Origin: Deltaproteobacteria bacterium
GTDB taxonomy: Bacteria; Desulfobacterota; Desulfobulbia; Desulfobulbales; Desulfobulbaceae
Length of the DNA: 35,160 nt
Reading direction: 5' to 3'
Assembly: GCA_024280455.1 (NCBI GenBank)
Contig: JAJRQC010000148.1
Location: 1 to 35,160 of the forward strand
Both the position numbers and the translations under genes were made by a program. Of this stretch, positions 6,127 through 34,704 are shown piece by piece (positions within the stretch are counted from its first letter, which is position 1; every line of letters begins with the position of its first letter). The notes under the pieces are model-generated. The model searched no databases. It was given only the letters and a program-made list of their open reading frames with translations, and was not told the DNA's origin.

Positions 6127-6620
6127 GATTTTCAGATAAACCAGCATGGCTGGACCAGATTTATAACGTTACAGCCACAACGAACGATGAAAATAGCCTG
6201 ATACGACATCACTTCGTGGGCGATTTTCGGATAAACCAGCATGGCTGGACCAAGATTTTTAACGTCACAGCCACAACCAAGGATGAAAATAGCCTGAATC
6301 AGCGTACTTCGTGGGCGATTTTCGGATAAACCGCCATGCTTTTCCGGCACAACAAACTATGAAAATCAACAAGTTGCGTTCATAACATCGCGTAATTCGA
6401 TTTTCGGATAAACCAGCATGGCTGGACCAGATAAGCGGAGCGAAGCGCAGACTCCGGGTTTTTAACGTCACAGCCACAACCAAGGATGAAAATAGCCTGA
6501 TGCGGTATCACTTCGTGGGCGATTTTCAGATAAACCGCCATGCTTTTCCGGCACAACAAACTATGAAAATCAACAAGTTGCGTTCATAACATCGCGTAAT
6601 TCGATTTTCGGATAAACAGC
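6127..6620. repeat. Tandem composite repeat array, order A-A-B-A-B
   Basis: Five units follow head to tail, each beginning GATTTTC(A/G)GATAAACC: A1 6127-6221, A2 6222-6316, B1 6317-6398, A3 6399-6520, B2 6521-6602, then a sixth truncated start at 6603. B1 and B2 are both 82 bases and differ at one base. A units share the hairpin CCAGCATGGCTGG, then CACAGCCACAAC and GATGAAAATAGCCTGA. A3 carries about 27 extra bases containing GCAGACTCCGGG, also present in the lone copy near 10.48 kb. In the B units, GATTTTC is answered by GAAAATC, so each can fold. No ORF of note is present. This is not a CRISPR array. Confidence 0.8.
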
Positions 6621-7287: not shown

Positions 7288-8523
7288 GTGAATTCCTATC
7301 TTATTTTCATCCTCTGTGTCCTGGCCTTTGGCTATCTGCTTGATCTTACGATTTCGCTCCTGACGCTTCGCTCTCTGCAGCCGATTCTACCCGAGGAATT
7401 TTCCGGGATCTATGATGCGGACAAATACGAGCGTTCCCAGGAATATACCAGGGTGAATCTACGTTTTTCCCTGTTGCAGGATACCCTCATGCTGCCGCTG
7501 ACCATCGCCTTCATCATGCTGGGCGGTTTTAATCTGCTTGACCAGTGGGCCAGGAGTTTTGGTTTTTCCACCATTCCCGCCGGATTGATCTTTACCGGCC
7601 TGCTCCTGCTCCTCAGCGGTCTGGTGCACCTGCCTTTTTCCATCTACTCCACCTTTGTCATAGAAAATCGTTTTGGGTTAAACCGGACAACGGTCAAAAC
7701 CTTTGTCTTTGATATCCTTAAAATCATAGTGCTCGTCGTTCTTCTCGGCGGCCCGATTCTGGCCCTGATTCTCTGGTTTTTTGAGCAGGGCGGCGATCTG
7801 GCCTGGCTGTATTGCTGGCTGCTGGTGGTTGGTTTTACAATCATCATGCAGTTTTTGGCCCCGGTTGTCATTATGCCGCTTTTCAACCGGTTCACTCCGC
7901 TTGCCGATGGGGAACTGAAGCAGGCTATCACCGAGTATGCCCGTAAGCAGAACTTTGCCCTCCAGGGTATCTATACCATGGACGGGTCCAAACGTTCCAA
8001 CCGTCTCAACGCCTTTTTTACCGGTTTTGGCCGTTTTCGAAGGATAGTATTTTTTGACACCCTGGTGGAGAAGCTGAGCGTCGATGAACTTGTTGTGATC
8101 CTGGCCCATGAGATGGGACATTTTAAGAAAAAGCATATTCTGAAAATGATGGCCTCCAGCATCCTGCAGACCGGTCTCATGTTCTATATCCTTTCCCTGT
8201 TTATCCGGAATCCCGGTCTGTTTGAGGCCTTCGGCATGGAGCATCTCTCCATTTATGCCGGTCTGGTCTTTTTTGGTGTTTTGTATTCACCGATTTCAAC
8301 CCTGCTGTCGGTGGTGGGCAATGTCTTTTCCCGCAAATATGAATATCAGGCCGATGGTTATGCCGTCAGCACCACCGGAAAGGGCCGGGACCTGATCGCG
8401 GCCTTGAAAAAACTCTGTCTGGCCAACCTGTCCAACCTGACGCCCCATCCCCTGCAGGTATTTTTACAGTACAGCCATCCGCCGGTCCTGAGACGGATTG
8501 AGGCTATCAAGGCGATCCTGTGA
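7288..8523 (+). CDS. M48 family membrane metalloprotease (Ste24/CAAX prenyl protease 1-like)
   Basis: The 411-residue integral membrane protein has the Ste24-like architecture: an N-terminal M48_N region with transmembrane segments at about 3-24, 64-84, 97-120, 144-166 and 175-197, then a cytoplasmic catalytic domain. The zinc motif HEMGH is at 274-278 and the third ligand lies in KYEYQAD (E352). Two further hydrophobic segments (about 291-306 and 323-345) sit between these motifs. In bacteria such enzymes act in membrane-protein quality control rather than on prenylated peptides. The start is a GTG with no clear ribosome site. Its stop overlaps the start of the zinc-ribbon gene (GTGA), so these genes are coupled. 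Confidence 0.88.
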   Translation: MNSYLIFILCVLAFGYLLDLTISLLTLRSLQPILPEEFSGIYDADKYERSQEYTRVNLRFSLLQDTLMLPLTIAFIMLGGFNLLDQWARSFGFSTIPAGLIFTGLLLLLSGLVHLPFSIYSTFVIENRFGLNRTTVKTFVFDILKIIVLVVLLGGPILALILWFFEQGGDLAWLYCWLLVVGFTIIMQFLAPVVIMPLFNRFTPLADGELKQAITEYARKQNFALQGIYTMDGSKRSNRLNAFFTGFGRFRRIVFFDTLVEKLSVDELVVILAHEMGHFKKKHILKMMASSILQTGLMFYILSLFIRNPGLFEAFGMEHLSIYAGLVFFGVLYSPISTLLSVVGNVFSRKYEYQADGYAVSTTGKGRDLIAALKKLCLANLSNLTPHPLQVFLQYSHPPVLRRIEAIKAIL

Positions 8524-8672
8524 CAGCCGCATCCGAGGAAAAACAGGAGCTCTGTGCCCTGTGCGGCCGTTTGTTTCTTCCCGGTAAGCTTGTCTGGTCC
8601 GGTCGGCGGCAGGCCTTTGTCTGCCCGGACTGTCTGGCCGAAGAGGAGAGCTGCGGCTGTACCGATGACTAA
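8520..8672 (+). CDS. 50-residue zinc-ribbon-like protein
   Basis: This short gene reads from GTG 8520, which overlaps the stop of the M48 protease, to TAA 8672. The peptide contains LCALCGRLF (C12, C15) and VCPDCLAEEESCGC (C35, C38, C45, C47), a treble-clef or rubredoxin-like pair of CxxC knuckles plus a CGC tail, with an acidic C-terminus. Coding is supported by overlap at both ends: the next gene starts at 8665 within ATGACTAA. No named family is recognised; it could be a metal-binding partner of the neighbouring proteases or a regulator. Confidence 0.7.
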   Translation: MTAASEEKQELCALCGRLFLPGKLVWSGRRQAFVCPDCLAEEESCGCTDD

Positions 8673-9795
8673 GCGAATCAGGGACGATCAAGTTGACCAG
8701 CAGCTGCGGGCGGCCTGGCTTGCTCAGATCCAGGCTGAGTTTGAAGATATCTGTTTCCAGTACCGGGTTGATCTGCAGCCGCCGGTTTTTGAGTTGACCG
8801 ATTCCAGCACCCGGCTCGGCTCCTGGGATCATCGATACCGGATCATTGCCGTCAGCACGCACCTTATCCGCAGCCACCCGTGGAATATAACCCTCCAGGT
8901 CCTCAAACATGAGATGGCCCATCAGGTCTGCTCGGATATCTTTACAGCATCCGACGAGGGCCATGGCCCGTTGTTTAAGAAGGCCTCCGCGCTGCTTGGT
9001 CTGGCCGGCCCCTTTTGCCGGGCCAGGGCTGATAGTGCGGATTTTCCGGGCACCCTGGAACCTTCGACTTCACCCGTGACCGAAGAGGGGCGAAGAATAC
9101 TCTCCAAGGTGGAAAAGCTGCTGGCCCTGGCCGGGTCCGACAACGAGCACGAGGCGGCCCTTGCCATGCAGCGGGCCGGTGAGCTGCTCAGGCGCCATAA
9201 TCTGGATCTGTCACCTCCAGGCGATACGGCTTTTCTCAATCTAAGTCTGAACACCGGCAGGCAGCGTATGCCCGGCTACCTGCGTGGTATCTGCGCTCTG
9301 CTGCAGGAGTACTTTTTTGTTCAGGTTGTCTGCGCCTCAATCTATGATCCGGCTAAAGATGTACGTCTTCGAACCATTGAACTGTTTGGCCGCCGGGAAA
9401 ATGTGGTGGTGGCCGAACACTGTTATCATTTCCTGACCGGAAAGCTGGCCTCGTTATGGCAGCGGAACCGGCATCGTTTCCCACGGGGCGGACAGCGGGC
9501 CAGAAACAGTTATTTTCATGGGGTAATCGTCGGTTGTCGGGAAAAGCTGGCTCTTGGTCGACAGGAATGTTCAGCTCCGGCGGTGAAGCGGAAGCATGTC
9601 CGGGAACTGATATTGGCCGAAGATATCGGTCTGCAGAAATTTGTCGCCATCCATTTTCCCCGCCTGCGCAAGGGAAGTGCCCGGAGGATACGGCTCCACG
9701 CCGATGCCTACCGGGATGCCGTTGCCGCCGGCAAGACCCTGGTACTTCACCGGGCCATGGAAGAATCATCTGCAAACGGCGGCCTGCTCGAGTAG
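8665..9795 (+). CDS. SprT-like metalloprotease domain fused to a DUF2786 domain
   Basis: The 376-residue protein joins two regions. Residues about 15-115 resemble SprT/Spartan-type zinc proteases: LGSWDHRYRIIAVS (51-64), the active-site motif HEMAHQ (82-87) and a GHGPLF motif with likely third ligand H100. Residues about 144-183 match DUF2786 (ILSKVEKLLALAGS, then ALAMQRAGELLRRHNLDL), and the rest matches the tail usually found with it. SprT-like proteases are tied to DNA-protein crosslink or stress proteolysis in other organisms; the role here is unknown. I chose ATG 8665 because it overlaps the zinc-ribbon stop and the SprT similarity begins soon after; an upstream start at 8554 would run inside that gene. 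It converges on the kinase gene, 13 bases away. Confidence 0.85.
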   Translation: MTKRIRDDQVDQQLRAAWLAQIQAEFEDICFQYRVDLQPPVFELTDSSTRLGSWDHRYRIIAVSTHLIRSHPWNITLQVLKHEMAHQVCSDIFTASDEGHGPLFKKASALLGLAGPFCRARADSADFPGTLEPSTSPVTEEGRRILSKVEKLLALAGSDNEHEAALAMQRAGELLRRHNLDLSPPGDTAFLNLSLNTGRQRMPGYLRGICALLQEYFFVQVVCASIYDPAKDVRLRTIELFGRRENVVVAEHCYHFLTGKLASLWQRNRHRFPRGGQRARNSYFHGVIVGCREKLALGRQECSAPAVKRKHVRELILAEDIGLQKFVAIHFPRLRKGSARRIRLHADAYRDAVAAGKTLVLHRAMEESSANGGLLE

Positions 9796-34342: not shown

Positions 34343-34704
34343 GGGGGTGAAACGGATTCGACGGGGATATGAAAGCTCAACGTTGCATGCCGAGTGTTCT
34401 GTCAACTCGTAAACTTGATGGAATCTTAAATATAATCGCAGACGATTATAACTACGCAATGGCAGCATAGTCTGCTTTGCCGCTTCCCCGCTCCGCGCCC
34501 GTAAGGGCGGTGTGAAGCGTCGACTCTTCGGGCTGGTCAATCAGGTTCGCCTGTTACTCGATTGACGAGACTTCAGTAGGCTGGCATTTGGCAATCCCCT
34601 GTTCCAGGTGAGAGCCGAATGCGAGATTTTAACCTGGAACTAAGCATGTAGATACGTGAGGGGAGTATTTTCGGACGCGGGTTCAACTCCCGCCACCTCC
34701 ACCA
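34343..34704 (+). ncRNA. ssrA: Transfer-messenger RNA
   Basis: This 362-base one-piece tmRNA begins GGGGGUGAAACGGAUUCGAC, and ends with the T-arm GGGTTCAACTCCC, then CACCTCCACCA with CCA encoded. The ends pair as a 7-bp acceptor stem (one G-U). The tag frame starts at GCA 34438 and reads ADDYNYAMAA before TAG 34468-34470. The tag style is that of Desulfobulbales-like bacteria, from memory. It rescues stalled ribosomes with SmpB. Upstream, TTTTGGATACAAAA and TTTTGAATACAAAA form a repeated AT-rich promoter-like stretch, with no clear hexamers. Confidence 0.97.

What the first reader, a model, noticed from the sequence alone, without database searches (positions are those of the whole stretch)
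7288..9795. Coupled cassette: M48 membrane protease, 50-residue zinc ribbon, SprT-like/DUF2786 protein
All three genes overlap (GTGA, then ATGACTAA), implying fixed co-production of two different zinc protease domains and a small zinc-binding protein. The zinc ribbon is easily missed by gene callers. A joint stress-proteolysis or DNA-protein crosslink role is possible but unproven.
Basis: partly seen in the sequence, partly recalled or inferred. Interest (0 to 1): 0.5.

Follow-up and report, generated by a model that had tools for sequence, protein, structure and literature searches.

The report
Wandering zinc ribbon beside paired proteases
Two bacterial protein-cutting enzymes, one in the membrane and one resembling the human enzyme that cuts proteins stuck to DNA, are encoded as a conserved neighbouring pair, while the tiny zinc-binding protein between them is an optional wanderer that in related bacteria often sits at the end of unrelated genes.

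Summary
The three overlapping genes are as described: Ste24-type M48 membrane protease (7288-8523), 50-residue zinc ribbon (8520-8672), SprT-like + DUF2786 + DUF7168 protein (8665-9795). A fixed three-part cassette they are not. (1) M48-SprT is a real pair, but only in this bacterial family: neighbours in 48 of 49 readable loci, 0 of 25 in other families of the order. (2) The ribbon is optional and unspecific. In this family 16 genomes have it, always at the M48 3' end: fused in 9, separate in 7; four of the 16 lack an SprT match; 37 of 48 M48-SprT pairs lack the ribbon. In other families it mostly follows, or is fused to, unrelated genes (SfsA, EamA, NUDIX, YbjQ and others). Of 48 ribbons 13 are fused, 17 overlap the upstream gene, 4 start within 30 nt. 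It is under purifying selection; the window's copy matches no curated family. (3) The SprT domain resembles human SPRTN (Z 11.0) but lacks its zinc-binding part; DUF7168 weakly resembles KH domains. Best reading: a proteolysis pair plus an itinerant metal-binding tail that here belongs to M48, not SprT. Function is inferred.

The parts
7288..8523 (+). Ste24/ZMPSTE24-type M48 integral-membrane metalloprotease, 411 aa
   Evidence: Pfam Peptidase_M48_N 187.6 bits, Peptidase_M48 126.8 bits; PDB Ste24p phmmer E 2.7e-67; HExxH and E-[YF]-x-AD kept in 62 of 62 homologue rows
8520..8672 (+). 50-aa zinc ribbon (CxxC...CxxC-xAExESCGC-xD), separate ORF here, fused to the M48 C-terminus in 9 related genomes
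   Evidence: dN/dS below 0.5 in 16 usable pairs; window copy in no curated family at its cut-off
8665..9795 (+). SprT-like protease with DUF2786 and DUF7168, 376 aa
   Evidence: Pfam; 31 of 31 aligned homologues match all three domains at E up to 1; AlphaFold2 model pLDDT 78.8, pTM 0.73
8734..8991 (+). SprT-like metalloprotease domain (residues 24-109), HEMAH at 82-86 and H100
   Evidence: Pfam; H82, E83, H86, H100 invariant in the 31 rows of A3; SPRTN 6mdw Z 11.0, rmsd 3.6, 112 residues aligned
9094..9207 (+). DUF2786 (residues 144-181), predicted helical; pLDDT only about 57-67
   Evidence: Pfam; model
9259..9600 (+). DUF7168 (residues 199-312); model residues about 189-259 resemble KH domains
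   Evidence: Pfam; VIA-align Z 6.1-7.7 to KH domains, a middling score
8520..8523 (+). GTGA overlap of M48 stop and ribbon start
   Evidence: a 4-nt overlap of this kind in 14 of 48 ribbons
8665..8672 (+). ATGACTAA overlap of SprT start and ribbon stop

Best explanation
Two things share this operon. First, a conserved two-gene unit of this family (Desulfobulbaceae by the record titles of near relatives): a Ste24-type membrane protease and a SPRTN-like protease, probably co-transcribed and translationally coupled. Each probably cuts proteins that are stuck, one at the membrane, the other on nucleic acid, with DUF2786/DUF7168 replacing SPRTN's zinc-binding subdomain as the nucleic-acid-reading part. 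Second, a small zinc ribbon with a C-terminal CGC, one full copy per genome, that behaves as a portable 3'-end module: it is usually fused to, or encoded just behind, whatever gene it lies next to. In this family that gene is M48, so here it most likely acts as a detachable C-terminal metal-binding (possibly redox-sensitive) tail of M48, made by re-initiation at the GTGA overlap, and not as a part of SprT. Shown: gene structure, linkage, optionality, fusions, purifying selection, fold resemblances. Inferred: co-transcription and coupling, metal binding, every biochemical activity and substrate.
For: Pair: M48 upstream of SprT on the same strand, with at most the ribbon between, in 48 of 49 readable loci of family f1; 35 of 37 ribbon-free pairs have an SprT start overlapping or within 30 nt of the M48 stop, while the flanking genes change between genera. 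Ribbon: 16 f1 genomes, all at the M48 3' end, 9 fused and 7 separate; present with M48 in G016, G017, G029 and G042, which have no SprT match, and in G026, whose SprT lies on another contig. M48 tree: 9 changes among fused, split and none. In other families the neighbour or fusion partner is unrelated. 48 ribbons: 13 fused, 17 overlapping, 4 within 30 nt; C-terminal tail 2-8 residues in 47 of 48. SprT domain to SPRTN Z 11.0; M48-ribbon model of a relative to ZMPSTE24, Foldseek 1.1e-23.
Against: No expression, binding or activity data. M48-SprT linkage is confined to one family, so shared descent explains part of it. Foldseek alone gave nothing below 1e-3 for the SprT model; its first hit by E-value was IrrE/PprI (4.5e-3, probability 0.80), with SPRTN ninth (0.16, probability 1.00). 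DUF7168-KH scores are middling, non-KH proteins (LarC2 6.9, FAD synthase 6.5) score as high on the same stretch, the GXXG loop is absent from the window sequence, and no KH model is among the 21 Pfam families listed for the 31 members at E up to 1. In 14 of 48 ribbons no tight upstream coupling was found, and no background rate of such overlaps was computed, so the ribbon may simply be a free protein. Absences rest partly on incomplete genomes and on a first look that scores only part of its candidates.
Confidence: 0.6

Rival explanations
1. The ribbon is the missing zinc-binding subdomain of the SprT protease, supplied in trans, so the two form one split SPRTN-like enzyme.
For: The window SprT protein has no CxxC, and its model aligns to SPRTN only over the protease part; the ribbon overlaps SprT's start codon by 8 nt.
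Against: 37 of 48 M48-SprT pairs lack the ribbon; 4 ribbon genomes lack an SprT match and 1 has it on another contig; 9 ribbons are covalently part of M48.
Confidence: 0.06
2. The ribbon is an independent metal-binding protein whose gene merely rides on convenient operons; fusion or overlap with the upstream gene has no functional meaning.
For: One full copy per genome, many unrelated neighbours, and 14 of 48 without tight coupling.
Against: 13 of 48 are fused and 17 overlap; it was found in only 47 of 257 genomes of the order, so it is hardly housekeeping.
Confidence: 0.3
3. A joint stress-proteolysis machine in which M48, ribbon and SprT physically work together.
For: Overlapping genes; conserved M48-SprT neighbourhood in the family.
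Against: M48 and SprT are not neighbours in other families (0 of 25 readable loci); the ribbon is optional and unspecific.
Confidence: 0.1
4. M48-SprT adjacency is only inherited gene order with no functional link.
For: Confined to one family; elsewhere SprT has other neighbours, such as RF-1-domain (ArfB-sized) genes upstream in 5 loci.
Against: The flanks turn over while the pair stays, within 30 nt in 35 of 37 ribbon-free pairs.
Confidence: 0.35

Closest known systems
Ste24p / ZMPSTE24 (peptidase family M48A)
   Same: Full-length fold in the model of a relative (Foldseek 1.1e-23, TM about 0.7, 31% identity), M48_N membrane domain, HExxH and E-x-x-A-D motifs.
   Different: Bacterial; may carry a C-terminal ribbon; CAAX or translocon-unclogging activity untested. 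The unclogging role of Ste24 is taken from passages of PMC7820333.
SPRTN / Spartan DNA-protein crosslink protease
   Same: Protease domain fold (6mdw, Z 11.0, 20% identity) and HExxH...H.
   Different: No zinc-binding subdomain; carries DUF2786 and DUF7168 instead; no evidence of DNA dependence. SPRTN's activation by DNA is taken from passages of PMC7782752.
Phage DUF2786/DUF7168 proteins (PHROG 421)
   Same: C-terminal part (144-368) matches phrog_421 at 1.2e-23; a scan of viral contigs gave 73 loci, 71 of which match only from about residue 130 on; BFVD model matches.
   Different: Most of these phage versions show no matched SprT domain; phrog_421 is annotated as unknown function.
Small CxxC zinc proteins (YnfU family and similar)
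   Same: CxxC knuckles in about 50 residues.
   Different: Score far below the curated cut-off (YnfU 14.5 against 36 bits, 12 residues aligned).

Membership tests
Ste24/ZMPSTE24 M48A protease | M48_N five-helix membrane domain plus M48 catalytic domain above Pfam cut-off | tested here: met
   187.6 and 126.8 bits against 27 and 20.3
Ste24/ZMPSTE24 M48A protease | HExxH and downstream Glu (E-x-x-A-D) | tested here: met
   both in 62 of 62 rows; in the window HEMGH and EYQAD
Ste24/ZMPSTE24 M48A protease | Cleavage of CAAX or clogged-translocon substrates | not testable with these tools
   needs an assay
SPRTN-type DNA-protein crosslink protease | SprT protease domain with HExxH and third His | tested here: met
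   (H82, E83, H86, H100 invariant in the 31 rows)
SPRTN-type DNA-protein crosslink protease | Zinc-binding subdomain after the protease domain (recalled) | tested here: not met
   no CxxC in the window protein; CxxC in 2 of 90 homologue ORFs; only model residues 14-130 align to SPRTN
SPRTN-type DNA-protein crosslink protease | DNA-dependent proteolysis of crosslinked proteins | not testable with these tools
   needs an assay
KH domain (for DUF7168) | KH fold | tested here: inconclusive
   Z 6.1-7.7; the call notes that models without a clear Foldseek match have a typical best Z of 7 to 8
KH domain (for DUF7168) | GXXG loop (recalled) | tested here: not met
   no GxxG in residues 189-260 of the window protein (read by eye)
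Any named zinc-ribbon family (for the 50-aa ORF) | Score above the curated cut-off in Pfam or NCBIfam | tested here: not met
   window ribbon. For the 31 members of A2 no family stood out: among the 25 of 65 Pfam families shown the most widespread match 5 members and the lowest E is 9.4e-6 (3 members); all 10 NCBIfam families listed, lowest E 0.0082. Cut-offs are not listed per member there
Fixed three-gene M48-ribbon-SprT cassette | All three genes linked across relatives | tested here: not met
   11 of 48 M48-SprT pairs hold the ribbon

The most novel reading that the evidence does not exclude
The CGC ribbon is a portable 3'-end module: a single-copy mini-gene that repeatedly moves to the end of unrelated genes, is expressed mainly by fusion or stop-start re-initiation, and gives each host protein a shared metal- or redox-responsive tail. 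That would be a shared C-terminal sensor used one host at a time.
Probability: 0.15. Interest if true: 0.75.

Novelty: new variant of a known kind. Interest (0 to 1): 0.48.

Why it matters
It separates a real, testable protease pair (a Ste24-type enzyme and a bacterial SPRTN-like enzyme with DUF2786/DUF7168, two domains without known function) from a hitch-hiking ribbon. It also brings out a ribbon family that switches between fused domain and overlapping ORF, which makes visible how C-terminal domains are gained, split off and lost in bacteria. If the ribbon is a common sensor tail, one assay would apply to many unrelated host proteins.

Tried and rejected
Rejected: ribbon as a trans-acting SPRTN zinc subdomain (distribution). 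Rejected: M48 as a general partner of SprT (0 of 25 readable loci outside the family). Led nowhere: PADLOC gave no defence link, only a weak Cas8b match of the ribbon, E 0.0013. The PDB sequence search with the ribbon profile gave 142 sequences at E up to 1 (60 shown), mainly short CxxC knuckles of eukaryotic zinc fingers and LIM domains; the three alignments printed cover only the first knuckle. Promoter-like sites were no more frequent than in shuffles (2 against 2.3); terminator-like sites were 8 against a mean of 4.6, sd 2.1; neither is informative. A programmed frameshift joining M48 and ribbon was considered; I saw no slippery heptamer at the M48 end by eye and did not test further. Structure-search absences: no KH model among the Pfam matches; DUF2786 and DUF7168 were not folded alone. 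No three-way complex was predicted; the tool folds single chains. In print: searches for DUF2786 (5 papers, one mention each; titles and abstract starts seen), DUF7168 (0), SprT + DNA-protein crosslink + bacteria (89 papers; the 15 listed titles show eukaryotic or general DPC work), SprT + gene neighborhood + zinc ribbon (1 jumbo-phage paper, listing only), Spartan structure terms (0), Desulfobulb + zinc ribbon (0), SprT-like + Ste24 (3, lipodystrophy and ER-phagy by title) and a ribbon/CGC term set (0) showed nothing on this system; the library holds open-licence papers only. The ZMPSTE24 search was seen as a listing, one paper of it in passages.

Full report
What is there. The window belongs to a 4.15-Mb genome in 173 contigs; the named near relatives are Desulfobulbaceae. 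Three same-strand genes overlap: M48 protease 7288-8523, ribbon 8520-8672, SprT-like protein 8665-9795. Pfam supports the first and third above cut-off; nothing curated matches the ribbon at its cut-off.

The protease pair. SprT relatives were sought in 115 genomes, most from the genus and family: 75 have one, 50 of them in the window's family f1. I fetched the surroundings. M48 lies upstream on the same strand, with at most the ribbon between, in 48 of 49 readable f1 loci; in a few of them M48 is cut by a contig end or frame-shifted but present. The exception, G026, has the two genes on different contigs; G034 is cut off by a contig end and not counted. In the other families 26 loci were fetched, one cut off by a contig end; 0 of 25 have M48 beside SprT. 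Of the 37 f1 pairs without a ribbon, 35 have an SprT start overlapping or within 30 nt of the M48 stop, 2 are farther. Genes further out differ between genera (a shikimate kinase, cluster 8, downstream in the window's genus and in some loci of g5, g6 and g13; other clusters in g2, g8, g14), while the pair stays. Outside the family SprT has other neighbours; in 5 loci of families f6 and f12 an ArfB-sized gene lies upstream, of which the 3 scanned are RF-1 domain proteins by Pfam. The 31 aligned SprT homologues all match SprT-like, DUF2786 and DUF7168 at E up to 1. Of 90 homologue ORFs (some genomes twice, as loci of two searches), 80 have HExAH plus the third His; of the other 10, 6 have HExxH with Ser or Gly in place of Ala and 4 are fragments or frame-shifted.

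The ribbon is not part of a fixed cassette. With an 11-row profile (A1) 37 of 115 genomes match; in f1, 16 have the full ribbon (I left out four weak f1 matches, G014, G021, G043 and G059, that stop before the CGC end). All 16 have it at the M48 3' end: in frame as the M48 C-terminus in 9 (G011, G012, G016, G017, G022, G026, G029, G030, G042) and as a separate ORF in 7 (G000, G003, G006, G010, G013, G027, G040). SprT follows in 11 of the 16, is on another contig in G026, and has no match at E 1e-10 in G016, G017, G029 and G042. Thus 11 of 48 M48-SprT pairs contain the ribbon. On a quick M48 tree (62 rows, SH-aLRT only; G002, G005 and G066 are not in it because their M48 is broken or short, G030 enters by the part on its other contig) the three states need 9 changes and presence/absence 7, so it was split and lost, or gained, repeatedly; the deepest branches of the family are not resolved.

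The ribbon outside the family. A 31-row profile (A2) found 49 of 257 genomes of the order. I dropped G060 and G590, whose matches stop before the CGC end, and a second partial match in G092; 47 remain, one full copy each. In 395 genomes drawn from the phylum 31 matched, but only G000, G103 and G239 over the full length; 2 of 46 genomes of G239's order matched, one fully. In these samples the ribbon is thus nearly confined to this order; other phyla and viral contigs were not searched. Only part of the first-look candidates were scored per genome, so the counts are lower bounds. In 16 loci scanned, one or two per context, the upstream or fused genes belong to unrelated Pfam families: Zip, TauE, glutamine synthetase, HD_5, alpha/beta hydrolase, Methyltrans_SAM+PUA_3, EamA, SfsA, YbjQ_1, NUDIX, TPR/SPOR, Na+/H+ antiporter, Lcl_C, besides M48. 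In-frame fusions exist with M48, SfsA (G070, G083), NUDIX (G500) and EamA (G617). Over 48 ribbons (47 plus G239): 13 fused (read); 17 overlapping the upstream stop (14 by 4 nt, 1 by 8, 2 by 11); 4 starting 1-19 nt behind; 14 farther, unresolved or without a same-strand upstream ORF of 100 codons within 330 nt (upstream gene taken as the longest open frame, ATG and GTG starts only). No background rate of such overlaps was computed. Four Cys (first CxxC and the CGC) are kept in 48 of 48, each Cys of the second CxxC in 47 of 48; the Gly of CGC is Asn in one; the CGC is followed by 2-8 residues in 47 of 48 and by 17 in one. Of 20 pairs of related ribbons, 16 gave a usable dN/dS, 0.11-0.48; 4 were saturated. 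So it is a real protein under selection.

Structures. The SprT protein model has pLDDT 78.8 and pTM 0.73 from 31 sequences. Foldseek against the PDB gave no match below E 1e-3; its first rows are IrrE/PprI (4.5e-3), SPRTN comes ninth. VIA-align, which re-aligns Foldseek's candidates, ranked human SPRTN first for residues 14-130 (6mdw, Z 11.0, rmsd 3.6, 112 aligned, 20% identity), followed by small archaeal metallopeptidases (8.2-9.6), Wss1 (8.4-8.7) and HtpX (7.9), and KH domains for about 189-259 (Z 6.1-7.7). The KH resemblance is weak: LarC2 and FAD synthase score 6.9 and 6.5 on the same stretch, the GXXG loop is missing, and Pfam lists no KH match. The fused M48-ribbon protein of relative L038 has pLDDT 84.7; its ribbon part (residues 421-460) 75-84 by blocks of ten, with short strands and a C-terminal helix that starts at the second CxxC; its protease part is ZMPSTE24-like. 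Where the ribbon sits on M48 was not measured.

Mechanism. Ste24 cuts polypeptides that clog the translocon (passages of PMC7820333) and SPRTN cuts proteins crosslinked to DNA and is activated by DNA (passages of PMC7782752). By analogy, marked as inference, the pair may clear stuck proteins in two places; the ArfB-sized neighbours in other families, whose named relatives rescue stalled ribosomes (recalled), fit the same loose theme. The ribbon most likely is a metal-binding C-terminal tail of M48, made in cis or by re-initiation at the GTGA overlap. That M48 and SprT share substrates or regulation is not shown.

Verdict. The ribbon's habit of sitting at the end of unrelated genes is the more unusual finding.

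Noticed in passing
window 6155-6617; genome-wide: Copies of a repeat of about 90-96 bp, partly in tandem, sit upstream of the M48 gene; a 163-base piece of them has 88 matches across the window's own genome, the window's included, many in clusters: an abundant interspersed element of unknown type.
   Followed up: partly
L120, L123, L127, L130, L131 (families f6, f12): In 5 loci of other families an ArfB-sized gene (RF-1 domain in the 3 scanned) lies upstream of the SprT-DUF2786 gene, in four of them within 30 nt or overlapping by longest-ORF starts.
   Followed up: partly
L283-L355 (viral contigs): DUF2786-DUF7168 without a matched SprT domain is common in viral contigs: 71 of 73 loci of one scan match only from about residue 130 on; function unknown.
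   Followed up: no
L059, 5004-6023 and 8285-9508: A Lentisphaeria contig carries an SprT-DUF2786 gene and an M48 gene about 2.3 kb apart on the same strand, the only such case among the ten distant loci L054-L063.
   Followed up: no
window 34343-34704: tmRNA gene with tag ADDYNYAMAA.
   Followed up: no
G000:C63:47999-48112 (L002, L139): A partial ribbon-like match with in-frame stops elsewhere in the window's genome, E 7e-6, not reaching the CGC end; perhaps a decayed copy or another small zinc protein.
   Followed up: no
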